DNA of 42,793 nucleotides from an uncultured Saprospiraceae bacterium (GTDB lineage: Bacteria; Bacteroidota; Bacteroidia; Chitinophagales; Saprospiraceae). The stretch is taken from contig CALFWI010000078.1 of assembly GCA_937928615.1 (NCBI GenBank), positions 1-42,793 on the forward strand. The letters run 5' to 3'. This document shows, in pieces, positions 1 through 14,388 of the stretch. The notes beneath the pieces are model-generated. The model saw only the letters and a program-made list of their open reading frames with translations, was not told the origin of the DNA and did not search any database. Position numbers and translations under genes: made by a program. Numbering within the stretch: the first letter of the stretch is position 1; each line of letters opens with the position of its first letter.

Positions 1-955
1 CAATCTCATTCCCAAAAGCTAATAATTGCTCATAGCGAACGCCATCTAATTGCTTGCCGATAAAGGTATCGCTCTTTTCTAAAATCTCATGCTGCTTTTT
101 ACCCCCAAACCATTTAGACACCAAATCTTCTGCCATCACCACACTTACAGGTAAGTTCGTGTAAACATTATTGGTTTTGATTTTTACATACTTGATTTTT
201 GGTCCAACCGTCAAAGCGGTATTAGACGGCAACGTCCAAGGCGTGGTCGTCCAAGCGATGATTCTCACATCTTCGTTAGCATCATCAAAAAGGAAATCAG
301 ACGTTTCATTTTTAGTCACCTTAAACATGGCTACTGCCGACGTATCTTTTACATCTTGGTAAGCACCGGGCATATTCAATTCATGCGAACTCAAACCCGT
401 TCCTGCCGCAGGCGAATAGGGCTGAATCGTCAAGCCTTTGTACAATAAGCCTTTATTATACATCTGCGATAATAACCACCAAACTGATTCGATGTACTCA
501 TTTTCATAAGTGACATACGGGTTTTCTAAATCTACCCAATACCCCATTTTGATGGTCAAATCATCCCACAAATCCTTATACCGCATCACCGTTTCCTTAC
601 ACTTGGCATTATATTCATCTACAGAAATTGTTTTGCCAATGTCCTCCTTCGTGATACCCAATTCCTTTTCTACCGCTAATTCAATCGGTAAACCGTGTGT
701 ATCCCAACCCCCCTTTCGTTCTACTCGCTTGCCCTTCATCGTCTGGTATCGGCAAAAAATATCCTTAATCGCTCTTGCCATGACATGGTGAATCCCAGGT
801 TTTCCATTCGCAGAAGGTGGTCCTTCATAAAATACAAAACTGTTATCTTCGGAACGTTGGTTGACACTTTTGGCAAATACATCTTGCTCCGCCCAGAAGG
901 CTAAGATTTCCTTATCGATAGAAGGCAGATGAAGCGATTTTTCTATTTTATACAT
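1..955 (-). CDS. ileS: Isoleucyl-tRNA synthetase, N-terminal part (3' end lies beyond the left window edge)
   Basis: Not in the ORF track because it is open at the edge. Minus-strand translation from ATG at 953-955 reads MYKIEKSLHLPSIDKEILAFWAEQDVFAKSVDQ..FYEGPPSANGKPGIHHVMARAIKDIFCRYQTMKGKRVERKGGWDTHGLPIELAVEKELG..., typical class I IleRS with an HIGH-like region (GIHH). Confidence 0.93.
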   Translation of the reverse strand, partial: MYKIEKSLHLPSIDKEILAFWAEQDVFAKSVNQRSEDNSFVFYEGPPSANGKPGIHHVMARAIKDIFCRYQTMKGKRVERKGGWDTHGLPIELAVEKELGITKEDIGKTISVDEYNAKCKETVMRYKDLWDDLTIKMGYWVDLENPYVTYENEYIESVWWLLSQMYNKGLLYKGLTIQPYSPAAGTGLSSHELNMPGAYQDVKDTSAVAMFKVTKNETSDFLFDDANEDVRIIAWTTTPWTLPSNTALTVGPKIKYVKIKTNNVYTNLPVSVVMAEDLVSKWFGGKKQHEILEKSDTFIGKQLDGVRYEQLLAFGNEI

Positions 956-987
956 AACGATTATTTTAGAAAAGAGAGGCGAGAGTA

Positions 988-1020
988 GAGAATAGAGATG
1001 GTTAACGTCTCTATTCTCTA
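988..1020. repeat. Perfect 12-bp inverted repeat in the ileS leader (AGAGAATAGAGA ... TCTCTATTCTCT)
   Basis: Direct reading; embedded in a longer GAGAGTAGAGAATAGAG-type purine/pyrimidine-rich repeat (about 970-1045). Confidence 0.7.
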
Positions 1021-1132
1021 CGCTCTGTTCTCTACTCTTGAGAATGAAGGTGCAAAGATACCTATTTAATTAAAACGAATCCTTACAAAAAAGATGCAAA
1101 TACTAAAAGAAGACTTCTGTCTTGCTGTAACT

Positions 1133-1171
1133 AAAAAAGCGTTGACAAATTTAATCTGTCAACGCTTTTTT
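1133..1171. terminator. Hairpin with A/T tracts (AAAAAAGCGTTGACA-aatttaatc-TGTCAACGCTTTTTT), probable bidirectional terminator
   Basis: Perfect stem flanked by A-run and T-run. Confidence 0.75.
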
Positions 1172-1345
1172 AATCCAAATATCTAGCATTTTCACAGATT
1201 ACGGGTTGAATCCTGAATTATAATAATGCTAATAATTATGTTTGGAGATACTTGCATAGTCATTTTTTATAATGAGTGGACAAATTTAGGGGAAATATAA
1301 TAGAGTTGCAACTTGTTTGTTTGACTTACAATGTATATAATAAAA

Positions 1346-1375
1346 AAGTTCCACTATATTGCTATAGTGGAACTT
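1346..1375. terminator. Hairpin AAGTTCCACTATA-ttgc-TATAGTGGAACTT near a T-rich tract; probable terminator of the 1465-1833 gene
   Basis: 13-bp perfect stem, downstream of the minus-strand ORF 1465-1833. Confidence 0.65.
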
Positions 1376-1464
1376 AATTTTTTGGGGTCTAAATTAAATA
1401 GCTTATTCTTCTTTGGGGTTTTACCTTTTACGAACAACTATTTATATAAAAAACTAGTATGTGA

Positions 1465-1833
1465 TTAACTTGTTGGAGTATAAGTAGTAAAAGTTACATT
1501 ATTCTGAGCAGTTAAATTAACACTAGGGTCAGAACCGAATATCACAAAGTTAGTAATTGCATTGTTCCAACCTGATGGCATAGAGTCAACTTCCTGATTA
1601 GGAGTAAACAACAAACCTACACCGTGTTTGTTAAAGGCTAAAAACCAAGCACCAGCACCAATTGAAAGAGCACTAATATCAGTACTTTCGTTATTACTAG
1701 TACCAGCCCAATTTATTTGATGAAGATTAGGAACTGTAGTTGGTCCTTGAAAAGTCTGACTTTTGCCTGAATTATTCCCATCACTATCAGAATTATCTTT
1801 ATATACGATTACTGCACCAGTTGGAGCTGCCAT
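1465..1833 (-). CDS. Small protein with a probable beta/gamma-crystallin-like fold
   Basis: 122 aa; GAVIVYKDNSD..G.SQTF near the N-terminus, two N/D-N/D-x-x-S/T-like patterns (STDISALSI, WNNAITNFVIFG), and an aromatic-rich GAWFLAF strand between them. Motif reading only. Confidence 0.5.
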   Translation of the reverse strand: MAAPTGAVIVYKDNSDSDGNNSGKSQTFQGPTTVPNLHQINWAGTSNNESTDISALSIGAGAWFLAFNKHGVGLLFTPNQEVDSMPSGWNNAITNFVIFGSDPSVNLTAQNNVTFTTYTPTS

Positions 1834-2530
1834 AATTAAATTGTTTTTATGCGTCTAAAAAATACATGTTTTTTTAATGGTGTAGATAGTTTCTGCAGCA
1901 ACTACTTTACTCATTGGCGTAGCAAGAACTGTAGTTAGTTAAAGGAGTTCTTTGACTACTTGAAGGTATTTTTCTTCGCATTGTGTTAAAAAATAGAAAA
2001 GAGTTTCTTCAACTTATCATATTGGATATTACTTTTTATTAGCTGGATTCGCTCTATTTAAATAAGTAATTATCTTATATTTTAAATTGCTTACATAGAT
2101 TAGTCCCTTTAGTCTAGAAAAGTGACCCGCTTTTTAATATTAAAAAATATATTTATTTTATTTTTAATAAATTGTTATTTAAATAATTGATAATCAGTAT
2201 ATTAAGGGTTAAGATTTTCATTAAAAAGGATGAACATAAATTAAAGGTTAGTCATTAATTTTAAAATTAGACTGCTTTCTTACTTTCAAATTTATTGTTA
2301 ATCATCAAAGGTGGTATTTAAAAAGGGAGCGATAGGCGAAAATTTATAGGAGAAAGACAGGAATGAAATTGAATTAGTTTAAAAGGTGGGCTTGCTGAAT
2401 TTTGAGTACTCATTTGTAAACACTCAAATAATTAATTCAATTGGTTGATGTGACTTTTTTTAAAAGAAAGAATGGCTGTTGTTATACTAATGGTTGGCTA
2501 AATGAAATTTGACGAGAGGTTATATGCTTA

Positions 2531-2608
2531 AGTAGCTTGGGTATCTTGCCTAAGTAGGCAAATAGAGCTTGCTGAAAATTATTACTCAGGCTAGAAGCCC
2601 AAGCTACT
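2531..2608. repeat. Imperfect inverted repeat, arms AGTAGCTTGGGTATCTTGCCTAAGTA / rc AGTAGCTTGGGCTTCTAGCCTGAGTA
   Basis: 26-nt arms with about four mismatches, read directly. Confidence 0.7.
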
Positions 2609-2632
2609 GTAAAGGCAAAATGATTTTTAATA

Positions 2633-3424
2633 TTATTCTAGTTCTTTTAAGAGCGCACCTGCCTGCTTAGCATATTTTCCATTTGCTGTAGTTTCAATTA
2701 CTGCTTGTAACCAATTCTTGGTCTGTACAATATCTTCCTTTTTTAAAGCAATCAAAGCCAAGTACCATTGCGCCTGCTGTGTATATGAATGCCCTGTCTC
2801 TTGTCCAACAGTCGTCAAAGCAGTTTCTGCTAAGGAATGTTGGTTGGTAGCGAGGTAAGCTAAACCTTGATAAAATTGGGCAGTTATTAAATCTTCGGGA
2901 GCTAAATTTTTATCGTTGACTAATGGAGATAGCAGCGTAAGTGTGGCAGCATAATCTCCAGCTAAATACTTTTGTTGTCCTTCTGCTAAAGGATTAATTA
3001 AGTCAGTATTGGTAGAACGAATCGTACTCGCTGCAGTATAGGGTTCATACGCATTCGCATATAAGGCCTGTGCATTTGGGGAATTGGTTTGCCCCCATTG
3101 CCACCAACCAACACTTATTAATAGTGCAAAAGAGGCGGCGATTGCTAAGGCATAGAATGGTCGGATTCGACGACTAGGAATTGTTTTTTTTTGAGTAGCT
3201 GTATATTTCGCTCCAAATTCATTCCCCATGTCTTGTAGTAAAGCTTCCATTTGCAATGCTTTTGGATTACCAATGGCTTTATCAACTTCTCGACTTAGTT
3301 GCCAAGTGGTCGCTAGTTTTTTATTGGTCTTTAAGTTTTTTTCAAAAAGTTTTTTATCTTCGGGAGAAAGTTCATTGTCCTCGTAGGCAGTTATTTTTTT
3401 GAATAAATCGTTCTGGTCACTCAT
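2633..3424 (-). CDS. Putative membrane anti-sigma factor with C-terminal TPR-like region
   Basis: N-terminal acidic helical region (LFKKITAYEDNELSPEDKKLFEKNL), one TM segment (FYALAIAASFALLISVGWW), then TPR-like repeats; directly downstream of an ECF sigma factor gene. Confidence 0.65.
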   Translation of the reverse strand: MSDQNDLFKKITAYEDNELSPEDKKLFEKNLKTNKKLATTWQLSREVDKAIGNPKALQMEALLQDMGNEFGAKYTATQKKTIPSRRIRPFYALAIAASFALLISVGWWQWGQTNSPNAQALYANAYEPYTAASTIRSTNTDLINPLAEGQQKYLAGDYAATLTLLSPLVNDKNLAPEDLITAQFYQGLAYLATNQHSLAETALTTVGQETGHSYTQQAQWYLALIALKKEDIVQTKNWLQAVIETTANGKYAKQAGALLKELE

Positions 3425-3493
3425 GTTTTTTTATTTTATAGCGTAGTTATTTGATAGAGAAGAAATAACCTAACTATTTTATTTGGTTTAATA

Positions 3494-4075
3494 TCAAGCG
3501 TGAAATAGTTGTTTGAACTTATTGTCTGCTTGAATCAATTTTAATAATTGATTTTTGCATTTGTATTTTCGTTTTTTGGCATAGCCAATACTAGAGAAGC
3601 CCATTTGTTTTGCAATATTTTCCATAGACATACCTTTTAAAAAAGACTGCAATACTTGCTGGCAATTAGCGCCTAGTAATTTGAATTTTTCCCGATACAA
3701 TGATTCTTTTGCTCTCCAGAGGATTTCTTCTTCGAAGGTATCTTCAGAGATTAGTTCCAATTGTTCGGGTAAGGATACCTCTTTATTCGATTTTTTTCTT
3801 AATTTTTTTAGCCAGACATTTCGGCAAATGGTATAAAGGAAGGTGTGCAAGCCATATTGTAACACAAAATCAGGCTGTTGCGTTTTTTCATAAATGACCA
3901 TCATGGCATCTTGAAAAACGTCTTTGGCATCATCAATCGTTCCTTTATTATTAAGGATATATTGAGCAATGCTGTCAAAATATTGCGTATAAATTTGACG
4001 AATGACCAAGGGGTCTCCAGCAGCGATTTTTGTTAATAATATAGCATTATCAACTGGGGTTTGAAGATTTGTCAT
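3494..4075 (-). CDS. RNA polymerase sigma factor, sigma-70/ECF-like
   Basis: Region 2-like DAKDVFQDAMMVIYEKTQQPDF..HTFLYTICRNVWLKKLRKK and region 4-like CQQVLQSFLKGMSMENIAKQMGFSSIGYAKKRKYKCKNQLL. Confidence 0.85.
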   Translation of the reverse strand: MTNLQTPVDNAILLTKIAAGDPLVIRQIYTQYFDSIAQYILNNKGTIDDAKDVFQDAMMVIYEKTQQPDFVLQYGLHTFLYTICRNVWLKKLRKKSNKEVSLPEQLELISEDTFEEEILWRAKESLYREKFKLLGANCQQVLQSFLKGMSMENIAKQMGFSSIGYAKKRKYKCKNQLLKLIQADNKFKQLFHA

Positions 4076-4171
4076 GTTTACTAAGTTAGAGAGGAAGCTA
4101 AATTATTGCGTAATCAACTCAAATATATAATTTTTATATAAACTATTGATTGTAAATATTAAAAAAAAAGA

Positions 4172-4218
4172 TGACCAAATAGGTCACTTTTAAAAAAAGA
4201 TGGTACTAATCAGTACCA
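4172..4218. promoter_or_regulatory. Two consecutive palindromes between divergent genes: TGACC-aaata-GGTCA (4172-4186) and TGGTACT-aatc-AGTACCA (4201-4218)
   Basis: Read directly; each is preceded by an A-rich AAAAAAAGATG context, with 29 nt between equivalent positions. Confidence 0.55.
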
Positions 4219-4284
4219 CGCTAATTAACTAACCGCTTTATTACTTGCGTAAAGTAAACCCTAAAAGCACAAATACTTTTAATT

Positions 4285-5094
4285 ATGCCTGATAGAGGAA
4301 GACGAAGAGTCGTTGTTCAAAAAACAGCAATAGGCGACCCTACTTTTTTGCTACAATTTGCTTTAGAAACCGAAAAAAAAGAAAAAGTTCCGCTTCGTAT
4401 TAATATCAAAATAGGAGAAAATGAGAACAGTCCAGAATTTACGAAAAAAATAAAAGGTACTTTCCCTACCAATAAGAATATTAGGATAATGTGTAGCTAT
4501 TCAGGTAGCTTAAAGCATGTTAGTATTCCTGGTAATGTTTGTCTTAGTTTGTTAGAATCAGATGAAAAAACGGTTAATTCCGAAGCACAGATTTATTATG
4601 ACAATCTAAAAAAAGTGCCAGCGACGACTTTAAGTTTAAAAGAAAAACAAACCGTTCATTTTCATTTTTTAGATGGGAATGAGGATGATTATAAGAATGA
4701 AGTTTTTTTGACTTATAAGGCAAAAAAAAGCGAAGGAAATCGTTTATTCACTAGAGATGTCTGTATTTCTAGTGATTCAGCTAATAAATGGAAAATAGAG
4801 CAAATAAGTCCAGGTATAAAACGATATTGGATAAAAAATAAAAATAAATATTTAACGGCTATTAAGGATAAGGTCTTAGTGATGACTACGAACCCTTCAG
4901 AAGGGAGTGAGTGGGTTTGTCAAGAAGCGAGAACAGAGCGTTATGGTCAAGAAATTTCTATTTATGCGATTAAGCATCATGTGAATAAGACTTACCTTTT
5001 ATGTGATAGTGGAACGGGGAAAGTTTTTTTACAGGAGCATAGTTTACCCGTTTTTCCTTGGTACTTACATCCTAAAGTTAAGAACCCAAAGTAG
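4285..5094 (+). CDS. Hypothetical protein; C-terminal half possibly beta-trefoil/fascin-like
   Basis: 269 aa; C-terminal repeats such as RYWIKNKNKYLTAIKDKVLVMTTNPSEGSEWVCQE ... KTYLLCDSGTGKVFLQEHSLPVFPWYL. Fold suggestion is weak. Confidence 0.6.
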   Translation: MPDRGRRRVVVQKTAIGDPTFLLQFALETEKKEKVPLRINIKIGENENSPEFTKKIKGTFPTNKNIRIMCSYSGSLKHVSIPGNVCLSLLESDEKTVNSEAQIYYDNLKKVPATTLSLKEKQTVHFHFLDGNEDDYKNEVFLTYKAKKSEGNRLFTRDVCISSDSANKWKIEQISPGIKRYWIKNKNKYLTAIKDKVLVMTTNPSEGSEWVCQEARTERYGQEISIYAIKHHVNKTYLLCDSGTGKVFLQEHSLPVFPWYLHPKVKNPK

Positions 5095-5144
5095 CTCTTC
5101 TTTAACTTGATAAATACGGAGTATTAGCTTGATACTCAAAAAAT

Positions 5145-5180
5145 AAAAGACATTTTGACTGCGGTTAAAATGTCTTTTTT
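5145..5180 (+). terminator. Rho-independent-like terminator AAAAGACATTTT ... AAAATGTCTTTTTT
   Basis: 12-bp stem followed by T-run, downstream of the 4285-5094 CDS. Confidence 0.8.
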
Positions 5181-5275
5181 AGGTAGAATCAACCTGTACT
5201 AAATAAAATACAATCTTTTTGTACCTTGAGCTAATTATTACATTCTCCCTACTCCTTAAAGCTCAATTTTTATAA

Positions 5276-8122
5276 ATGTTTAAATCAATTAAACAATTCC
5301 TTTTATTATTATTTATTTTATACGCTACGTTTCTAATCGCACAAAATGATTCAACTACGCTTATTGAAAATACTTTCAAAAAAATCGATACTTTTTACGA
5401 AAGTGGAAATTATGATAGTATCTTAATTTATTCCAAGAAATTGCTCCCTTTAGTAAAGCAGGAAAATAAAAGTCGTGTTTTATTAGAAATAGGAACGGCG
5501 CTCCTTTATCTAGAAGAGTATGAGGAAGCATTAAATTATTATCAAAAGAGACTAGATTATACCTTGACAATTACCTCTGCTGAAAGTGAGGTAATCGGGG
5601 ATTGTTATTATTACCTAGCTTGTAGTCACTATGAGTTAAGTAATTTTAATGAAGCTTTAAAATACTATAAACAATCATTGAATTTAACGCACGATTCGCT
5701 CTCTTTTGCTTTGACCTTATCTGCTATGGCAGGGATTTATTCTGAAAAATCAGATTATGATAATGCGATATCATATGAAGAACAAGCCCTTCATTTTTTT
5801 GCAGTAGATGGAACGCCCGAGGATTTATATAAAAGTAATAATTCGCTTGCTTTATATTATTACATGAAACAGAATTATCAACAAGCATTTCTGTTTTCAA
5901 AACAAGCAGTTTCCTTCTTAGAAGATGAAAAAATTATCAATGCCCCTACTTATAACAATTATGCACTAATTTTAATACAAATTGATGATTTTGAAAAAGC
6001 CGCATTTTATTTACAAAAAGCTTTAGATAGTCCTGAAAAACAATTCTTTGAAGTCACTCAATTCAATCAAGCTTTTTTAGACTACGAAAGTAAAAATTAT
6101 GAAAAAGCACTAACTTCCTTTGAAGAAGTGATTGATATTTACCATAAAAAATACCCTAATGGAAATACAGGTATCGGTAAAGCCTGGTACTACATTGGAC
6201 AAATTAAAGTACTACAAGGGCAAACCACAACCGCTTTAAAAGCCTACCAAAAGTCGTTACAAGCTTTAGTTCCTGATTTTACCAATGATGACCTAATCAC
6301 GCTTCCCAGTCTAAATCAATATTGTCGTTCCCATCGAAATCTATTACGTACTTTAATTGCGAAAGCCAATACTTTAGGAATGGCTTATTTAGCGGAAGAA
6401 GAAATTGTTGGTGATAATAGTAATACCGTATTCGAGACTTTTGACTTAGCGATAGAAATAGCAGAAACTTTGAGGCGAAGTTACAGAGCGGAGGAGTCAC
6501 AGTATTTTTTAGCGGAAGAGACGAAGACCTTATTTGACCAAGCTATAAAATTTAGCCATGAACTTTATCAAGAATCAAAGGAACAGGTCTATTTAGAAAA
6601 AATGCTTTTTTATATAGAAAAAAGTCAAGCGCCTATTTTATTACAAAAGCAGCTGACCAATACAGCGCAATTAACAGGGGGCGTTCCCGAAGCTTTGATT
6701 AAAAAAGAAAAACAATTGGCGGTAGATTTGACGTTTTATAAAAACCAACAAGCCAAAGCCAAAGAAAAAGGAGATACTACAAAAATAAATTTATACAGCA
6801 ATTATTTATTAGAGGGTATACAGGAACTCAACAATTTAAAAGATACTTTACAAAATGAGTATCCCAAATACTATCATTATCAATATGCTACTGTACCTAT
6901 AGATATCGCTACTTTGCAAAATACTCTAGCAGCAGACCAGTTATTATTACACTATTATTCTACGGAATCAATACTTTATACCTTGGCTATTACTCCGCAA
7001 TCAGCAATAGCCATAACACAAGACATAACAGCTATCGAAAGCAGTAGTAAGGATTTATTAACCGCTATTCAAAATCCACTAACAAAAAAATTACCCAACA
7101 AAATAGCTTTTGATTTACTGACCAATGCTGCTGCTCAATTATACGAACGATTAGTGCAACCTGCTTTAGAAAAAATAGCCATTCCTCCAAAAAGATTGGT
7201 CGTTATTAATAATGATTTTTTAACAGAAATTCCCTTCGAAGTTTTGTTAACAAAAACGCCAACTTCGGATGAGAACAATTATTTATCATTAGATTATTTG
7301 ATAAAAAAATATGCGGTTAGTTATCAATCATCTGCGTCTTTATTTGAGCGATTAGCGGTTCAAAAACCTAAAATGGCTGCTAATAAATTACTAGCTATAG
7401 CCCCCTTTGCCAAAAAGGAATCATTAACGGCACAAGCTTTCACTCGGTCTGGTTTTGATAATTTACCGTTTACCAAACAAGAGGTTCAATCAATAGAACA
7501 ACTCTACGAGACGACTGCTTTATATGAACAAGCAGCTACGAAGGATGCTTTTTTAGCCAAAGCTCCTAATTACCAAATCCTACACTTGGCGACACATGGA
7601 GTAGCCGATTTTGAAGAAAAAGCGAACGCACATTTATTATTTCATCCTGAAAAGAATCCAGTTTCCATAAATCATATTTTATATAATTATGAAATACAGA
7701 ACCTAGCATTAAAAGCAGATTTAGCGGTATTGAGTGCTTGTGAAACGGGGGCTGGAAAGATTGATAAAGGAGAAGGTATTTTAAATTTGGCGCGGAGTTT
7801 TTTTTATACAGGTGTGCCTAGTGTCATTATGTCGAAGTGGAAAATCAATGACCAATCTAGTAGTTTGATTATTAAAAGTTTATATCAAAACCTGAAAGTT
7901 AATGATACTAAAGACGAAGCATTGCAGGCAGCAAAAGTCAGTTATTTAGAAAACGAAGCTGATTTAGTAACGGCGCATCCTTTTTATTGGGCAGGATTGG
8001 TGCAATTGGGAAATGCTAAAGCTTTACCTAAGCATTCAAGTAATTTATTTTTTTTAGGTATCAGTACTGGATTGGGGGTATTATTACTTTTATTTTGGCA
8101 GTTTTTTAACAGAAGGTCTTAA
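5276..8122 (+). CDS. TPR-repeat CHAT domain (caspase-like) protein with N-terminal signal peptide and C-terminal TM anchor
   Basis: N-terminal hydrophobic signal (FLLLLFILYATFLIAQ); many TPRs; CHAT motifs ILHLATHG (His) and LAVLSACETGAGKIDKGEGILNLARSFFYTGVPSVIMSKW (Cys); C-terminal LFFLGISTGLGVLLLLFWQFFNRRS. Confidence 0.9.
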   Translation: MFKSIKQFLLLLFILYATFLIAQNDSTTLIENTFKKIDTFYESGNYDSILIYSKKLLPLVKQENKSRVLLEIGTALLYLEEYEEALNYYQKRLDYTLTITSAESEVIGDCYYYLACSHYELSNFNEALKYYKQSLNLTHDSLSFALTLSAMAGIYSEKSDYDNAISYEEQALHFFAVDGTPEDLYKSNNSLALYYYMKQNYQQAFLFSKQAVSFLEDEKIINAPTYNNYALILIQIDDFEKAAFYLQKALDSPEKQFFEVTQFNQAFLDYESKNYEKALTSFEEVIDIYHKKYPNGNTGIGKAWYYIGQIKVLQGQTTTALKAYQKSLQALVPDFTNDDLITLPSLNQYCRSHRNLLRTLIAKANTLGMAYLAEEEIVGDNSNTVFETFDLAIEIAETLRRSYRAEESQYFLAEETKTLFDQAIKFSHELYQESKEQVYLEKMLFYIEKSQAPILLQKQLTNTAQLTGGVPEALIKKEKQLAVDLTFYKNQQAKAKEKGDTTKINLYSNYLLEGIQELNNLKDTLQNEYPKYYHYQYATVPIDIATLQNTLAADQLLLHYYSTESILYTLAITPQSAIAITQDITAIESSSKDLLTAIQNPLTKKLPNKIAFDLLTNAAAQLYERLVQPALEKIAIPPKRLVVINNDFLTEIPFEVLLTKTPTSDENNYLSLDYLIKKYAVSYQSSASLFERLAVQKPKMAANKLLAIAPFAKKESLTAQAFTRSGFDNLPFTKQEVQSIEQLYETTALYEQAATKDAFLAKAPNYQILHLATHGVADFEEKANAHLLFHPEKNPVSINHILYNYEIQNLALKADLAVLSACETGAGKIDKGEGILNLARSFFYTGVPSVIMSKWKINDQSSSLIIKSLYQNLKVNDTKDEALQAAKVSYLENEADLVTAHPFYWAGLVQLGNAKALPKHSSNLFFLGISTGLGVLLLLFWQFFNRRS

Positions 8123-8161
8123 GTAATTTAATATGGATAGACCTCCTAGTGAAAAAATGAT

Positions 8162-8221
8162 AAAAATCCGTTGTTCTATAATGTTTTTTCAACAACGAAT
8201 TAAGTCAATAACGGATTTTTA
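8162..8221. terminator. Hairpin AAAAATCCGTT ... AACGGATTTTTA after the CHAT gene
   Basis: Outer 11-bp complementary arms with inner GTTGTT/AACAAC pairing and terminal T-run. Confidence 0.65.
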
Positions 8222-8255
8222 AATCTTTATTACTAACGGGATAAAAAGGACATTT

Positions 8256-9200
8256 TTGCTGGATTCTAAAAATAACATTACGCCAATTCAAGAAATAGAA
8301 GCTGCTTTATTACAAGAAAAAGAAGTTCGTCTATTCATAAAAAGAGATGATTTAATCCACCCTCAAGTCTCAGGTAATAAGTGGCGCAAGTTAAAATACA
8401 ATTTGCTTACCGCAAAAGCACAAAAGCAAGAAACGTTATTGACTTTTGGTGGCGCTTTTTCGAATCACATTTATGCAACTGCCGCAGCAGGAAAAGTCTT
8501 TGGTTTCAAAACGATTGGCTTGATTCGAGGAGAAAGAATCGAACCACTCAATCCTACTCTAGCCTATGCGGAGGAAGTCGGAATGGAATTACATTTTATT
8601 ACTCGGTCGGATTATAGAAAAAAAGAGGAAGTAATTTACCAAAAACAAATAAGAGAACAATTTGGTGCCTTCTTTTTAATTCCAGAAGGCGGGACAAATA
8701 TGTCTGCTATAAAAGGTTGTGCAGAATTAGTGGAAGAGGTTCAGGAACAATTACCGGAACTACCCGATTATTGGTGTGCTTCCTGCGGAACGGGCGGCAC
8801 TTTAAGTGGAATTATTGCAGGTTTAAACGGACAAAAAGAAGTATTGGGCTTTTCTGCTTTAAAGGGAGATTTTCATCAGCAGGATATTAGTAAGTTACTC
8901 CATAAGGTATCGGACACTTTCAAAGTGTCCGACACCTTAGACAACTGGCAAGTCAATACCGATTATCATTTTGGCGGTTATGCCAAATTTAAACCGCCAT
9001 TAATTGATTTCATGAATACCTTCAAAAAGGACAATAATATCCAATTAGAACCCATTTATACAGGAAAACTTTTTTATGGCATTTACGATTTAATAAAAAA
9101 CGATTATTTCCCTAGCGGAAGTAGTATCTTCGCAGTTCATACGGGCGGACTGCAAGGAATCGCAGGATTTAACCGTCGTTTTGGCAATATTATTATGTAA
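8256..9200 (+). CDS. Pyridoxal-phosphate-dependent 1-aminocyclopropane-1-carboxylate deaminase / D-cysteine desulfhydrase family protein (TTG start)
   Basis: IKRDDLIHPQVSGNKWRKLKYNL, FGGAFSNHIYATAAAG, CGTGGTLSGIIAGL, VHTGGLQG motifs of the fold II PLP family. Confidence 0.88.
   Translation: MLDSKNNITPIQEIEAALLQEKEVRLFIKRDDLIHPQVSGNKWRKLKYNLLTAKAQKQETLLTFGGAFSNHIYATAAAGKVFGFKTIGLIRGERIEPLNPTLAYAEEVGMELHFITRSDYRKKEEVIYQKQIREQFGAFFLIPEGGTNMSAIKGCAELVEEVQEQLPELPDYWCASCGTGGTLSGIIAGLNGQKEVLGFSALKGDFHQQDISKLLHKVSDTFKVSDTLDNWQVNTDYHFGGYAKFKPPLIDFMNTFKKDNNIQLEPIYTGKLFYGIYDLIKNDYFPSGSSIFAVHTGGLQGIAGFNRRFGNIIM
8903..8939. repeat. Near-perfect palindrome inside the CDS: TAAGGTATCGGACACTTT-C-AAAGTGTCCGACACCTTA
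   Basis: 18-nt arms, one mismatch (8909/8933), 1-nt centre; encodes KVSDTFKVSDTL in frame. Confidence 0.9.
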
Positions 9201-9203
9201 TCA

Positions 9204-9263
9204 GTTGCCAGTTACCAGTTGCCTGTTTTGCAACAAACTAACTGGCAATAGGCAACGGGCAAC
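9204..9263. repeat. Dispersed GTTGCCAGTTACCAGTTGCC-type inverted repeat (copy 1)
   Basis: Arms GTTGCCAGTTACCAGTTGCC and rc GTTGCCCGTTGCCTATTGCC. Confidence 0.75.
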
Positions 9264-9277
9264 TCGAAACAGGAACA

Positions 9278-11155
9278 ATGAATTACCTTACGTTAGAAAA
9301 TGTTAGTAAAATCTACGGAGAAAAAGTACTATTTGACGAGATTGATTTTCAAGTCAGTAAAGGGGAAAAGATTGCAATAGTCGCTAAGAATGGTGCAGGT
9401 AAATCGACCCTTTTAAAAGTGATTGCTGGCATAGAACCTCCTGAAGGAGAAAATCAGAAAGTTTGGTTGTATAAAAATATAGAAGTAGGCTATTTGGTAC
9501 AAGACCCAGATTTTGAAGGAGCGGATACGGTTTTAGACGCAGTCTTTAGTTCGGATAATCCGATGATGGCTGCACTACGAGATTATGAAGAGGCTTTAAT
9601 TTTGCAGGATAAGCCAGAAAAGATGCAGGCGGCATTGGTTAAAATGGATGATTTGAAAGCTTGGGATTTTGAATCCAAGTTTAAAGAGGTTTTGTTCAAA
9701 CTAAATATGACCAACCTTAATCAACCGATTTCAGAATTGTCTGGTGGTCAGAAAAAGCGATTGGCTTTAGCCAAATTAATTATTGATGACCCTGAGTTTT
9801 TGATTTTGGATGAGCCTACCAACCACTTGGATTTAGAAATGATAGAGTGGTTAGAGGAATATTTGCAGCAAAGTCGGATAACCTTATTAATGGTCACGCA
9901 CGACCGTTATTTCTTGGAAAGAGTATGTAGCCATATTGTCGAATTAGACGGTGGTGTTTTATATCGTTATAAGGGGACGTATTCTGATTTTTTAGAAAAG
10001 AAAGCGGCTAGAGAAGAAAATCAATCGACCGTTTTAGACCGTACTAAAAAGTTGATGAAGCGGGAATTGGAATGGGTGAGAAGACAACCTAAAGCGAGGG
10101 GGACAAAGGCAAAATCGAGAGTAGATAAATTTCACGAAATCAAAGAAAAAGCGACCCAGAAAGTGGATAATTCCGAAGTTACCCTTGGAATTAAAGGGCA
10201 GCGAATGGGGAAGAAGATTCTAGAAGCGCATAATATTAGTAAAAGTTTCGGAGATTTTGTGGCCGTCAAAAATTTTGATTATAAATTTAGACAGAAGGAA
10301 CGAGTGGGCATTGTAGGACCGAATGGTGTAGGGAAATCTACCTTTTTAAAGGTGATGACGAAGCAGCTGCGAACGGATTCAGGAAAAGTCGTAGTTGGAG
10401 GAAACACTGTTTTTGGCTACTATAATCAAGATGGGATTAAATTAGAAAAAGACCAAACCATTATTGACTATATCCGAAATATTGCGGAATTTATTCCAAT
10501 GGATAAGGGGCAAAAATTAACAGCAGAACAACTGTGTGAACGGTTTCTATTTGATAGAAAACAACAGCGAGTTTATATCTCGCAATTGAGTGGTGGAGAG
10601 CGTAGACGTTTGTATTTATTATCTGTGTTGATGGAAAATCCGAATTTTTTAATTCTGGATGAGCCTACGAATGATTTGGATATTTTGACCTTAAATATTT
10701 TAGAAAATTTCTTAATGGAATTTCCTGGTTGTGTCATTATCGTGACCCACGACCGTTACTTTATGGATAAAATAGTCGAACATTTATTCGTTTTTCAAGG
10801 AGCAGGCAAGATCAAAGATTTTAATGGCACTTATACAGAATATCGAAGCGCTCAAAAAGCAAAAGCAATAGAAGATAGACGTTTAGCTTCGACTGTAGTG
10901 AAAGAGAAAAAGGAAAAGCCTGCTTTCCAGTCAAAAACAGCGCCTGGTTTAAATAGAGACCAACAGAAAGAATTTAAGCGACTAGAAAAGCAGATTGAAA
11001 AATTAGAAGAACGGAAAGCAACTATAACAGAGAAATTTAATGATACCAGTATTTCAGCGGAAGATATTGAAAAATATTCCAAAGAATTAGGGACAATAAC
11101 AGAGGAAATAGAAGAAAAAGAAATGCGTTGGATGGAATTGGCGGATTTGGCATAA
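9278..11155 (+). CDS. ABC-F family ATP-binding protein (two ATPase domains)
   Basis: Two Walker A motifs (AKNGAGKSTLL, GPNGVGKSTFL), two signature motifs (LSGGQKKRLALAKL, LSGGERRRLYLL), no TM segments, C-terminal coiled coil. Confidence 0.93.
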   Translation: MNYLTLENVSKIYGEKVLFDEIDFQVSKGEKIAIVAKNGAGKSTLLKVIAGIEPPEGENQKVWLYKNIEVGYLVQDPDFEGADTVLDAVFSSDNPMMAALRDYEEALILQDKPEKMQAALVKMDDLKAWDFESKFKEVLFKLNMTNLNQPISELSGGQKKRLALAKLIIDDPEFLILDEPTNHLDLEMIEWLEEYLQQSRITLLMVTHDRYFLERVCSHIVELDGGVLYRYKGTYSDFLEKKAAREENQSTVLDRTKKLMKRELEWVRRQPKARGTKAKSRVDKFHEIKEKATQKVDNSEVTLGIKGQRMGKKILEAHNISKSFGDFVAVKNFDYKFRQKERVGIVGPNGVGKSTFLKVMTKQLRTDSGKVVVGGNTVFGYYNQDGIKLEKDQTIIDYIRNIAEFIPMDKGQKLTAEQLCERFLFDRKQQRVYISQLSGGERRRLYLLSVLMENPNFLILDEPTNDLDILTLNILENFLMEFPGCVIIVTHDRYFMDKIVEHLFVFQGAGKIKDFNGTYTEYRSAQKAKAIEDRRLASTVVKEKKEKPAFQSKTAPGLNRDQQKEFKRLEKQIEKLEERKATITEKFNDTSISAEDIEKYSKELGTITEEIEEKEMRWMELADLA

Positions 11156-11159
11156 GTCG

Positions 11160-11215
11160 GTTGCCAGTTGTCAGTTGCGAGTTTATCGCTCAACCGGCAA
11201 CAGGTAACTGGCAAC
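11160..11215. repeat. Dispersed GTTGCCAGTTGTCAGTTGC-type inverted repeat (copy 2)
   Basis: Arms GTTGCCAGTTGTCAGTTGCGAG and rc GTTGCCAGTTACCTGTTGCCGG. Confidence 0.75.
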
Positions 11216-11290
11216 GTTATCAAAAAGTTATTGGTAAATTTATCAGCGATTCCAGTATTTAAACTTCCTATTTTAGTAGGAAAAAGCGTT

Positions 11291-13228
11291 ATGAGTAATA
11301 ATAAAAAAGGCAAAAATATTAAAACAGATAATTCAAATTTAGCACAATCTTTTAAGGTCAGTAAACTCCTTACCTTTACTTTAATAAGTGGTCTGTTGAT
11401 ACCGCTTTTCTACATTTCCATATTATACGCTTTAACTACTTCTTGTGCACAACAGCAGCAATTAACAGGAGGACCAAGAGATACCTTTCCGCCCAATTTA
11501 ATCAAAGAATTATCGACCCCTAATTTTCAAACTAATTTTGAGATACAAGATATTAGTTTAGTATTTGACGAATACATTGAACTGCGAGATGTCATTAAGC
11601 AAGTGGTTGTTTCTCCACCATTAAATTATATCCCAAAAGTAGAACGGGCAAAAGGATTCAAAACAGCCACTTTTAAATTTAATGAAAAAGAAGAGCTAAA
11701 AGAAGGCGTAACGTATGCCATTAGTTATGGAAAATCCATTAGAGATTTAACGGAGAATAATGAAGTAGAGAACCTACAATTTCTTTTTTCTACGGGGGAT
11801 TATATTGATTCTTTAAAAATGTCAGGGAAAGTCGTGGATGTTTTAACGGGAGATGCGGTTCCTGAGGTGCTGTTTATGCTCTATAAAAACTTTGCAGATA
11901 CGGTTGTTCGGACAGAAAAACCTTATTATTTTGGCAAAACGGACAATAAAGGGGAATTTACCATTAATTACATGAAAGCAGGGGCTTTTAAAGGGTTTGC
12001 CTTAGAAGACCAAGATTTGAATTACCTGTTTAATATTCCGAAAGAAAGAATTGGTTTCACTTTGGATTCTATTCTCATTACAGATTCAACAGAAACAGAG
12101 ATAATCATCCAATTATTTCAAGAAATCACAACTTTGGAAAAACCTAAAATGGATGCAAGTACTTATGGTTTTATCAAGATGGGTTTTAAACGAGCGCCCT
12201 ACGATGCGGTACTAAATTATGATGTTGTGGGGCAAGAATTGTATAAAGAAACCGAAGGAGATACGATTCGATATTGGTATAATTTACAAGATTCAGTTGA
12301 TTGGAATTTCTATTTTCAAAGAGATACGCTGATAGATACTTTAACCGTGAAAGCCTTGAGTAGACAATTACAACCCATCGCTTTAAGTAGGCAGCGAACA
12401 GCAGACGAGGAAATTCCGATTAATCCATTTAAGCCACTTCCAATTACCTTTAATCATCCGCTTAAGAATGTGGATACTGCTTTGGTTAATTTTAGGGAAA
12501 TAATTATTCAAACTACCATTGCGGATAGTACAGAAAATACAGAAATAGATACTTTAGCAGAAAGAACAAAAGATAAACCCGTTAAGGTCATACTAACAGA
12601 TTCTACGGCAATTATTAAAGATGGAAACTTGGAGAATCCAGAAATAGATTCTTTAGAGGAAATAATGGATAGTACTTTCATCGATTTAATAACACAAGGG
12701 GAAAGATTGGTAGCGGGCTATCAAATTGATAGTTTGATAAAAAGAACCTTAATTTTGTCTTATGATTGGGAAGAGAACAAGACCTATCAATTAGCCTTTT
12801 TACCGGGTGCTTTGATAGATTGGTATGATGAACCGAATCAAGATACGATGCTTTTAACTTATGAAGTTAAAGCAAAAAATGATTTTGGAACGATTAATTT
12901 GACAGCGACCGAAATGGATAGCACAAAAAGCTATTGGTTTGAATTACGCCTTGGAACAAATGTAGTAAAGGGATTTTTAGTACAAAATACGACGACGTAT
13001 AAGGAGTCTTTTCCTGCCTTATTACCAGGAAAATACGAATTAAAAATCATTGAGGATTTAAATGGCAATAGTCGATGGGACCCAGGGAACTATGATGAAA
13101 AACGACAATCAGAAAAGGTTTCTACCGCTACTATTGAAGAATTAAGAGCGGGATGGGATGTGGAAGCAGAAGTAAAGGTAGATTTTGAAGAAAAACAAGA
13201 GTCAATCCCAGAAGAAGAATCCAATTGA
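11291..13228 (+). CDS. Membrane-anchored/lipoprotein-like protein with N-terminal Ig-like (SbsA/Big_5-type) domain
   Basis: ORF track starts at 11168, but that extension reads through repeat copy 2; ATG at 11291 (MSNNKKGKNIK) is more plausible. TSCAQQQQLTGGPRDTFPPNLIKELSTPNF...IQDISLVFDEYIELRD..VVVSPPL. Confidence 0.7.
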   Translation: MSNNKKGKNIKTDNSNLAQSFKVSKLLTFTLISGLLIPLFYISILYALTTSCAQQQQLTGGPRDTFPPNLIKELSTPNFQTNFEIQDISLVFDEYIELRDVIKQVVVSPPLNYIPKVERAKGFKTATFKFNEKEELKEGVTYAISYGKSIRDLTENNEVENLQFLFSTGDYIDSLKMSGKVVDVLTGDAVPEVLFMLYKNFADTVVRTEKPYYFGKTDNKGEFTINYMKAGAFKGFALEDQDLNYLFNIPKERIGFTLDSILITDSTETEIIIQLFQEITTLEKPKMDASTYGFIKMGFKRAPYDAVLNYDVVGQELYKETEGDTIRYWYNLQDSVDWNFYFQRDTLIDTLTVKALSRQLQPIALSRQRTADEEIPINPFKPLPITFNHPLKNVDTALVNFREIIIQTTIADSTENTEIDTLAERTKDKPVKVILTDSTAIIKDGNLENPEIDSLEEIMDSTFIDLITQGERLVAGYQIDSLIKRTLILSYDWEENKTYQLAFLPGALIDWYDEPNQDTMLLTYEVKAKNDFGTINLTATEMDSTKSYWFELRLGTNVVKGFLVQNTTTYKESFPALLPGKYELKIIEDLNGNSRWDPGNYDEKRQSEKVSTATIEELRAGWDVEAEVKVDFEEKQESIPEEESN

Positions 13229-13402
13229 TTAAGCGCTTGTTGGGGATTTGTTTTTGGAGATAAAAAAGGCGCTTTTTAACCCAAAACCTGTCCCGATACT
13301 TTGGGAGGATAAATTCCGAACAAGCGCTAAAGTAAAACGGATGGTTCATCCGTTATTATTAATGCGGATTAGTCGTCCGCTTTACCATGATAATCAAATA
13401 CC

Positions 13403-13588
13403 ATGATAAAATTTTTAGTAACAGGACTCATTCTTTATTTTATGTATAAATTCATGTTTAACGCTCCTTTAAGTGAGGGGCAAAAACAAGAAAATATTCG
13501 ACAAGAAGGAGATATAGACATTCGTCGAGAAAGTAAAAATCCAAGAGACGATAGCGGAGATTTTATTGATTACGAAGAAGTAGAGTAA
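13403..13588 (+). CDS. Small single-TM protein (DUF4834-like)
   Basis: 61 aa; N-terminal TM (MIKFLVTGLILYFMYKFMFN) and charged tail GDFIDYEEVE. Confidence 0.5.
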   Translation: MIKFLVTGLILYFMYKFMFNAPLSEGQKQENIRQEGDIDIRRESKNPRDDSGDFIDYEEVE

Positions 13589-13674
13589 TGTGCCCGTCAG
13601 CAGTTTGATTGTAACATAGTTCTCGAAACTGTGCAGTCGGCAGGAATTTATTAATAGCATATCAAGCAACTTCA

Positions 13675-14388
13675 ATGATTATTGAAAGGTGCTACAAAAT
13701 TTTACATTTGTCAACAGAAAATACAAAGATTAGCGATTGGGTTTTATACAAAAACAACCAATTAATTGCTTTTAATAAGCCTGCTGGAATTCCAATACAA
13801 CCAGATAAAACCGAAGCTAAGTCTTTATTAGAATTGGGGGAAATTTACGCCAAATCGAATGTCTTTATTATTCACCGAATTGACCGTCCTGCTAGTGGCG
13901 TGATTTTATTTGCTAAATCTAAAAAAGGATTGGCTAGAATGAATGCTCAATTCCAAGAGCGAACCATTAAAAAGACGTATCTGGCTGTTGTCAAAAATAC
14001 ACCAGAAAAAGAAAAAGGACAACTGGTTCATTATCTGCGTAAAAATGAAAAAGCGAATAAAACGCAAGTTTTTGAAGAACCCATAAAAGGCGGGAAAAAA
14101 GCTATTTTGAATTATCAATTGATTGGTAAAAGTGATAATTATAGTTTACTAGAAATTGATTTAGAAACGGGGCGGCATCATCAAATTCGAGCGCAGTTAG
14201 CTAAAATTGGGTCACCGATTAAAGGCGATGTCAAGTATGGCGCAAGACGAAGTAATAAAGACCGTTCCATTCATTTGCATGCTTGGAAGTTAAGTTTTCA
14301 ACATCCTGTTACTTCTGAGACGGTGGATTTAGTCGCTGATATGCCTGATGATTCGATTTGGAACTTTTTCAAATCGGAAATGCGGTGA
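13675..14388 (+). CDS. RluA-family RNA pseudouridine synthase
   Basis: FNKPAGIPIQP, HRIDRPASGVILFAKSKKGLARMNAQFQERTIKKTYLAVV, ETGRHHQIRAQLAKIGSPIKGDVKYGA. Exact start uncertain. Confidence 0.9.
   Translation: MIIERCYKILHLSTENTKISDWVLYKNNQLIAFNKPAGIPIQPDKTEAKSLLELGEIYAKSNVFIIHRIDRPASGVILFAKSKKGLARMNAQFQERTIKKTYLAVVKNTPEKEKGQLVHYLRKNEKANKTQVFEEPIKGGKKAILNYQLIGKSDNYSLLEIDLETGRHHQIRAQLAKIGSPIKGDVKYGARRSNKDRSIHLHAWKLSFQHPVTSETVDLVADMPDDSIWNFFKSEMR

What the first reader, a model, noticed from the sequence alone, without database searches (positions are those of the whole stretch)
2633..8122. Divergent sigma / TPR anti-sigma and CHAT caspase-like module with predicted envelope topology
Seen: ECF-like sigma (3494-4075) followed by a single-TM protein with a TPR-like C-terminus (2633-3424), divergent from a 269-aa protein of unknown fold and a TPR-CHAT protein with signal peptide, intact LHLATHG and SACETGAG motifs and a C-terminal TM. 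Established: CHAT is a caspase-like (clan CD) peptidase fold often fused to TPRs and implicated in conflict/cell-death systems; membrane anti-sigmas are often regulated by proteolysis. Inference: the outward-facing TPRs of both proteins could interact, and the CHAT protease could cleave the anti-sigma or process the 269-aa protein, making an envelope stress or self-destruction switch.
Basis: partly seen in the sequence, partly recalled or inferred. Interest (0 to 1): 0.68.

Follow-up and report, generated by a model that had tools for sequence, protein, structure and literature searches.

The report
Caspase-like protease paired with anti-sigma factor
A bacterial gene-control switch (a sigma factor held at the membrane by its inhibitor) is found again and again beside an exported, caspase/separase-like protease, which suggests that the protease cuts the inhibitor from outside the inner membrane and so turns on genes for surface proteins, some of them pore-forming toxins.

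Summary
The genes are real and at the stated coordinates. The window comes from a Saprospiraceae MAG and holds an ECF sigma factor, a membrane anti-sigma factor with a TPR domain outside the inner membrane, a divergent 269-aa protein, and an exported TPR-CHAT protein with an intact His774/Cys822 pair.

In relatives, 41 of 92 anti-sigma homologues have a CHAT gene within 10 kb, against about 4 expected. Of these, 36 lie on the opposite strand, in two fixed layouts. Among 20 class- or phylum-level loci examined, 15 are linked. All 41 full-length linked CHATs scored have an N-terminal export signal; most have a C-terminal anchor. Within genomes, CHAT and anti-sigma sequences co-diversify (p=0.001).

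A variable gene, usually exported, often precedes CHAT and tracks the anti-sigma clade (cytolysin-like pore formers, type IX-secreted proteins, lipoproteins). The 269-aa protein is this slot's local occupant: a beta domain plus a ricin-lectin-like trefoil without signal peptide, so an unlikely CHAT substrate in the same cell.

Most likely mechanism, inferred and untested: CHAT acts as a site-1 protease on the anti-sigma. Closest precedent: cytosolic CRISPR Craspase.

The parts
3494..4075 (-). ECF sigma factor, 193 aa
   Evidence: Sigma70_r2 over Pfam cut-off; TIGR02937 over cut-off, TIGR02985 below it
2633..3424 (-). Single-TM anti-sigma factor with C-terminal extracytoplasmic TPR domain, 263 aa
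   Evidence: AlphaFold2 pLDDT 86.8; paralogous family next to sigma genes
3206..3421 (-). Four-helix anti-sigma domain (residues 2-73), cytoplasmic side
   Evidence: helices 2-15, 21-33, 35-52, 54-73 in the model; basic residues before the TM
3092..3160 (-). Transmembrane helix (residues 89-111)
2993..3049 (-). Flexible extracytoplasmic loop (residues 126-144) between TM and TPR domain; proposed cleavage region
   Evidence: non-helical, lower pLDDT
3017..3019 (-). Conserved Arg136 of the loop (Arg/Lys in 66/68 CHAT-linked and 33/38 unlinked homologues); candidate P1 residue or structural
2639..2992 (-). Extracytoplasmic TPR bundle (residues 145-262)
4285..5094 (+). 269-aa protein in the variable slot: polybasic N-terminus, all-beta N-terminal domain, C-terminal beta-trefoil; no signal peptide
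   Evidence: homologues in the same slot in two other genera; ricin-B lectin hit for homologue L100; poor model, pLDDT 51
4786..5076 (+). Ricin-type beta-trefoil-like C-terminal part of the 269-aa protein
   Evidence: weak Inhibitor_I66 hit at 163-218; RicinB_lectin_2 in homologue L100, above cut-off
5276..8122 (+). Exported TPR-CHAT protein, 948 aa
   Evidence: CHAT E=3e-58, TPR_12 E=4e-25
5276..5341 (+). Signal-peptide-like N-terminus (MFKSIKQFLLLLFILYATFLIAQ)
   Evidence: hydropathy; same in 41/41 full-length linked homologues
5387..6265 (+). TPR region of the CHAT protein
7127..8014 (+). CHAT (caspase/separase-like) domain
7595..7597 (+). Catalytic His774
   Evidence: conserved in 65/66 linked CHATs
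7739..7741 (+). Catalytic Cys822
   Evidence: conserved in 65/66 linked CHATs
8042..8107 (+). C-terminal TM helix followed by NRRS (basic, cytoplasmic tail)
5145..5178 (+). Terminator-like hairpin between the 269-aa gene and the CHAT gene
   Evidence: -17 kcal/mol, z = -6.4
4171..4219 (-). Two tandem terminator-like hairpins upstream of the sigma gene
   Evidence: z = -5.4

Best explanation
This is one copy of a conserved Bacteroidota signalling module. An ECF sigma factor is held inactive by a single-pass anti-sigma factor whose TPR domain sits outside the inner membrane, and the partner gene encodes an exported, mostly membrane-anchored TPR-CHAT cysteine protease. The proposed mechanism is as follows. 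A signal sensed by the TPR arms outside the inner membrane activates CHAT. CHAT then cuts the anti-sigma in the loop between its TM helix and its TPR domain (site-1). The shortened stub is finished by the M50 site-2 protease, and the freed sigma transcribes the neighbouring surface or cargo gene, perhaps among other targets. Shown: gene identities, topology signatures, intact catalytic dyad, strong and wide genetic linkage, co-diversification, cargo tracking the anti-sigma clade, presence of an M50 protease in the genome. Inferred: the signal, the cleavage and its site, the site-2 step, and the regulon.
For: Linkage: 41/92 versus about 4 expected, 36/41 on opposite strands, and two stereotyped layouts. 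Of 20 CHATs first scored as unlinked, 7 prove to sit beside diverged sigma/anti-sigma pairs. Of 20 class/phylum-level loci, 15 are linked, some with overlapping 3' ends. Topology: 41/41 full-length linked CHATs have an N-terminal signal, 31/41 pass a strict C-terminal TM threshold, mostly with basic tails, and 58/61 anti-sigmas pass the TM threshold. Dyad intact in 65/66. Co-diversification within genomes: CHAT-anti p=0.001, CHAT-sigma p=0.0005. The anti-sigma model has a loop between the TM and the TPR bundle with a conserved Arg/Lys often followed by a small residue. Some copies without CHAT have another peptidase nearby: exported C14 caspase-like (L149), M48-like (L035), papain-like (L040). 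M50 protease in the own genome. Precedent: the TPR-CHAT Csx29 cleaves the anti-sigma-like Csx30 that inhibits CASP-sigma (PMC10028731).
Against: No cleavage data exist. The Arg of the loop is conserved family-wide, also without CHAT nearby (66/68 versus 33/38, p=0.095), so it does not single out CHAT. The separase residue that reads P1 Arg (D2151, PMC9729208) aligns with Ser863 here, so Arg specificity is not supported by that residue. Many TPR anti-sigmas have no CHAT nearby. No promoter motif shared between sigma and CHAT upstream regions was found. The tree does not give CHAT linkage a single origin.
Confidence: 0.5

Rival explanations
1. CHAT is an output, not the switch. The sigma factor drives expression of CHAT and its cargo, and CHAT processes exported cargo (for example activates cytolysin-like toxins or matures surface proteins). 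The anti-sigma is controlled by another protease or signal.
For: The cargo gene directly upstream of CHAT is usually exported, and its type tracks the anti-sigma clade: cytolysin-like in sister loci L043/L060, the same type IX cargo in L048/L082, lipoproteins in L138/L143/L145. CDC-like toxins are known to be activated by another clan CD protease, C11 (PMC11169675).
Against: CHAT remains linked to the sigma/anti-sigma pair where no cargo gene is present (many convergent loci). In the window the cargo protein has no signal peptide. No shared promoter signal was found.
Confidence: 0.28
2. CHAT acts on the anti-sigma without cutting it, through TPR-TPR binding outside the membrane (a co-sensor or scaffold).
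For: Both proteins have TPR domains on the same side; TPR-anti distance correlation with within-genome permutation p=0.03.
Against: His and Cys are retained in 65/66 linked CHATs, which implies that catalysis is selected.
Confidence: 0.12
3. The module is a self-destruction or anti-phage device in which CHAT kills the cell on activation.
For: CHAT proteases occur in conflict systems (general knowledge), and two relatives carry cytolysin-like genes next to CHAT.
Against: No defence-family match apart from a generic TPR model, no CRISPR-like array among the repeats listed for the first 12 kb of the window, no phage relative of the 269-aa protein, many paralogous copies per genome, and extracytoplasmic topology.
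Confidence: 0.07

Closest known systems
Type III-E CRISPR Craspase: Csx29 (TPR-CHAT), Csx30, CASP-sigma (PMC10028731, PMC9729208)
   Same: TPR-CHAT protease genetically tied to an ECF sigma and its inhibitor; separase-like CHAT with a His/Cys dyad; CHAT proteins of Craspase structures are among the few PDB sequence matches to this CHAT profile
   Different: Craspase is RNA-guided by Cas7-11. Here CHAT has a signal peptide and a C-terminal TM, the anti-sigma is a membrane protein with TPRs and its profile did not bring up Csx30 among the PDB matches shown, and no CRISPR-like array was seen nearby
RseA/DegS/RseP-type regulated intramembrane proteolysis (E. coli sigma-E; from general knowledge, cited in PMC10028731)
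   Same: Single-pass anti-sigma with cytoplasmic anti-sigma domain and extracytoplasmic domain; an M50 site-2 protease is present
   Different: The dedicated site-1 candidate is a CHAT cysteine protease, not an HtrA/DegS serine protease; the outer domain of the anti-sigma is a TPR bundle
ECF54 sigma factors with CHAT, subtilase and carboxypeptidase in their context (PMC8999054)
   Same: ECF sigma with CHAT in its gene neighbourhood
   Different: [quoted passage not shown] here a membrane TPR anti-sigma is encoded beside the sigma
Caspase-EACC2-ECF sigma-TPR neighbourhoods (PMC8195603)
   Same: Caspase-superfamily protein, ECF sigma and TPR protein in one neighbourhood
   Different: Those caspases carry an EACC2 domain; no exported TPR-CHAT or TM anti-sigma is described in the passages read
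Bacteroidota CDC-like toxins (PMC11169675)
   Same: Cytolysin-like proteins occupy the cargo slot in two relatives
   Different: The known activating protease is C11 (DpnB), not CHAT; the window itself has no such toxin

Membership tests
CHAT peptidases (clan CD) | CHAT domain with His/Cys dyad | tested here: met
   PF12770 E=3e-58; H774 and C822 in columns conserved in 65/66 linked and 16/16 unlinked CHATs
CHAT peptidases (clan CD) | peptidase activity | not testable with these tools
   no biochemistry
Craspase (type III-E) | TPR-CHAT gene with ECF sigma gene | tested here: met
Craspase (type III-E) | CRISPR array / Cas7-11 in the locus | tested here: not met
   no CRISPR-like array among the repeats listed in window 1-12000; no Cas7-11-sized ORF in 1-14000 by inspection of the ORF list. 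The rest of the incomplete MAG was not searched
Craspase (type III-E) | cytosolic protease without export signal | tested here: not met
   signal-peptide-like N-terminus and C-terminal TM
Craspase (type III-E) | Csx30-like substrate | tested here: inconclusive
   the anti-sigma profile finds TPR proteins in the PDB, not Csx30, but only 60 of 203 hits are shown
Membrane anti-sigma factors (class I) | N-terminal helical anti-sigma domain, TM, gene beside its ECF sigma | tested here: met
   model, TM, sigma 69 nt upstream; pairing in relatives
Membrane anti-sigma factors (class I) | binds and inhibits the sigma | not testable with these tools
   needs biochemistry
Zinc anti-sigma (ZAS) | His/Cys zinc motif in the anti-sigma domain | tested here: not met
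   no His or Cys in residues 1-85 of the window protein; zf-HC2 hit below cut-off
ECF54 | CHAT in context and no anti-sigma | tested here: not met
   CHAT present but an anti-sigma is encoded; formal ECF group assignment not done
Ricin-B-type lectins | beta-trefoil profile match | tested here: inconclusive
   homologue L100 above cut-off (29.0 vs 25.6 bits), L101 below it; window protein itself only a weak I66 hit
Regulated intramembrane proteolysis | site-2 protease available | tested here: met
   one Peptidase_M50 gene, E=1.4e-51
Regulated intramembrane proteolysis | site-1 cleavage in the extracytoplasmic loop | not testable with these tools
   flexible loop 126-144 and conserved Arg only

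The most novel reading that the evidence does not exclude
Bacteroidota carry a widespread, CRISPR-free, extracytoplasmic counterpart of Craspase: separase-like TPR-CHAT proteases act as dedicated site-1 proteases of TPR anti-sigma factors, in many parallel copies per genome, each controlling its own exchangeable surface cargo (pore-forming toxins, type IX-secreted proteins, lipoproteins, lectins).
Probability: 0.37. Interest if true: 0.8.

Novelty: new variant of a known kind. Interest (0 to 1): 0.6.

Why it matters
CHAT proteases are common in bacteria, but substrates are known for very few of them. A fixed genetic pairing with a membrane anti-sigma, seen in several families of the class and copied many times per genome, predicts substrate, compartment and role for a large group of them. 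It also extends the Craspase theme (CHAT protease releases a sigma factor) to an extracytoplasmic, non-CRISPR setting, and could explain how these bacteria control sets of surface proteins and toxins. I found no description of this module in the open-access papers searched; most subscription papers are not held, and the main ECF re-classification paper was not held either.

Tried and rejected
Loop Arg136 as a CHAT-specific signature: first set significant (65/66 vs 19/25, p=0.0015), but with more unlinked copies and a fresh alignment it fell to p=0.095, so only suggestive. S1-pocket argument from separase D2151: the aligned residue is Ser863, so not supportive. Shared promoter dyads between sigma and CHAT upstream regions: none. 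Fold search with the 269-aa model: model too poor (pLDDT 51), no match at E<=0.001. Homology of the 269-aa protein with cargo proteins of L031 and L063: not supported. Peptidase-inhibitor (I66) reading of the 269-aa protein: below cut-off and better explained as a generic ricin-type trefoil. Rfam: nothing.
Full report
1. What is there. The sigma factor (3494-4075, minus) is an ECF-type sigma-70. Sixty-nine bases downstream on the same strand lies a 263-aa protein (2633-3424). Its AlphaFold2 model, built on 30 homologues (mean pLDDT 86.8), shows a four-helix N-terminal domain, a TM helix (89-111), a short helix, a flexible loop (126-144) and a C-terminal TPR bundle (145-262). The residues before the TM are basic, so the N-terminus is cytoplasmic and the TPR domain is outside the inner membrane. 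On the other strand are a 269-aa gene and a 948-aa TPR-CHAT gene with a signal-peptide-like start, His774, Cys822 and a C-terminal TM followed by NRRS. Two relatives named Saprospiraceae MAGs have contigs of the same lengths as genomes that the genome search places in the window's own family, so the window is from a Saprospiraceae MAG (55% complete).

2. The association is real. The anti-sigma belongs to a family with up to 11 copies per genome, and each copy examined on sufficient sequence sits beside an ECF sigma, with few exceptions. Of 92 copies in 33 genomes, 41 have a Pfam CHAT domain within 10 kb, against 4.1 expected if CHATs were placed at random. This is a lower bound, because the CHAT list was truncated and many contigs are short. 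In 36 of the 41, CHAT is on the opposite strand. There are two layouts: tail-to-tail with the anti-sigma, or divergent from the sigma as in the window. When 20 CHATs scored as unlinked were fetched, 7 proved to sit beside diverged sigma/anti-sigma pairs, while CHATs with no signal peptide (including one in the window's own genome, L115) did not. In 20 loci chosen as good anti-sigma matches outside the family, 15 have CHAT, often with overlapping 3' ends. In a set of weaker family members the link is rare, so CHAT pairing marks part of the anti-sigma family. On a tree of 106 anti-sigmas, CHAT linkage is clustered (19 changes, 31.5 in shuffles) but not a single clade.

3. Shared features of the linked CHATs. 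All 41 full-length ones in the first set have an N-terminal hydrophobic signal. By a strict hydropathy threshold 31 also have a C-terminal TM, mostly followed by basic residues. His and Cys are kept in 65 of 66. Pairwise distances of CHAT and anti-sigma correlate (r=0.24). The correlation survives permutation within genomes (p=0.001 for anti-sigma, 0.0005 for sigma), so a CHAT matches its own neighbour better than other copies in the same genome.

4. The variable gene. Directly upstream of CHAT, in the same direction, there is often another gene. It is usually exported: cytolysin-like proteins (PF01289, E about 1e-36, in L043 and L060), type IX-sorted proteins, an M43 metalloprotease, PKD proteins, subtilases and lipoproteins. 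Its type follows the anti-sigma clade. L043 and L060 are sisters (100/99) with cytolysin-like proteins 55% identical, although one locus is convergent and the other divergent; L048 and L082 share a type IX cargo. In the window this slot holds the 269-aa protein. Homologues (23-25% identity) were found in only two other genomes, in the identical layout, and one of those anti-sigmas is the sister of the window's (100/93). Homologue L100 matches the ricin-type beta-trefoil lectin family above its cut-off, so the protein is probably an all-beta N-terminal domain plus a lectin-like trefoil. It has no signal peptide and no room for one. A strong terminator hairpin separates it from CHAT (z=-6.4), so the two genes may be transcribed separately.

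5. Mechanism. The best-supported reading is proteolytic control: CHAT is a dedicated site-1 protease that trims the anti-sigma outside the inner membrane, after which the M50 protease of the genome and cytosolic proteases would free the sigma. The steps from topology to linkage are shown; the cleavage is inferred. The flexible loop between TM and TPR is the natural target. It carries an Arg/Lys in 66 of 68 linked copies, but also in 33 of 38 unlinked copies, so this residue cannot be credited to CHAT. The separase residue that reads P1 Arg is Ser863 here. Some copies without CHAT nearby have another peptidase in the neighbourhood (C14, M48-like, papain-like), which fits a general need for a partner protease. 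The main rival is that CHAT processes the cargo and is itself an output of the sigma. The two are not exclusive.

6. Comparison with the known. Craspase is the nearest precedent: its TPR-CHAT cleaves Csx30, which inhibits an ECF sigma, and CHAT proteins of Craspase structures are among the few PDB matches to this CHAT profile. The present system is not a Craspase: no CRISPR-like array was seen, the protease is exported, and the anti-sigma is a membrane TPR protein. ECF54 has CHAT in its context but was described without an anti-sigma. Caspase-EACC2-ECF-TPR neighbourhoods were described by others. Of the papers searched, only the Craspase paper holds 'CHAT domain', 'anti-sigma factor' and 'sigma factor' together. 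The library is open-access only, and the main ECF classification paper was not held, so priority is not certain.

7. Limits. Gene calls in relatives are longest-ORF based. The chance expectation assumes uniform placement. Topology rests on hydropathy and the positive-inside rule. Some loci were chosen because they were linked, so the fractions for fetched loci are not unbiased estimates; the 41/92 figure is the fair one.

Noticed in passing
L043:4961-6763(-), L060:6147-7973(+): Cytolysin-like (CDC-like) pore-forming proteins encoded directly upstream of sigma-linked CHAT genes in two related genomes, in opposite gene layouts; CDC-like toxins are known to need proteolytic activation.
   Followed up: partly
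window 4171-4219 (-): Two tandem terminator-like hairpins between the divergent 269-aa gene and the sigma gene, pointing at the sigma gene; possibly insulation against antisense read-through, or attenuation.
   Followed up: partly
window 5145-5178 (+): Very stable terminator-like hairpin between the 269-aa gene and the CHAT gene, suggesting separate transcription units.
   Followed up: partly
window 1465-1833 (-): 122-aa ORF 800 nt downstream of the anti-sigma with no Pfam, NCBIfam or defence-family match above cut-off.
   Followed up: no
L149:6054-7253(-): Exported caspase-like (Peptidase_C14, E=2e-26) gene divergent from a sigma/TPR-anti-sigma pair that lacks CHAT.
   Followed up: partly
L035:9470-11029(+), L036:2391-3923(+), L084:11454-13025(+): TPR anti-sigmas of genus-level relatives with a neighbouring HEMTH or M48-like exported protein.
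   Followed up: partly
L142, L146, L147, L154: Across class-level relatives, a fixed order of 323-aa protein, 650-aa PKD/DUF7619/DUF7849 protein and CHAT, divergent from sigma/anti-sigma; function unknown.
   Followed up: partly
L031:7921-15127: One CHAT gene lying between two sigma/anti-sigma pairs that face each other.
   Followed up: no
G000:C450 (L115) and L113: A cytosolic-type CHAT gene (no signal peptide) beside a nearly identical (98%) neighbouring gene in the window's genome and a same-genus relative, not linked to any sigma pair.
   Followed up: no
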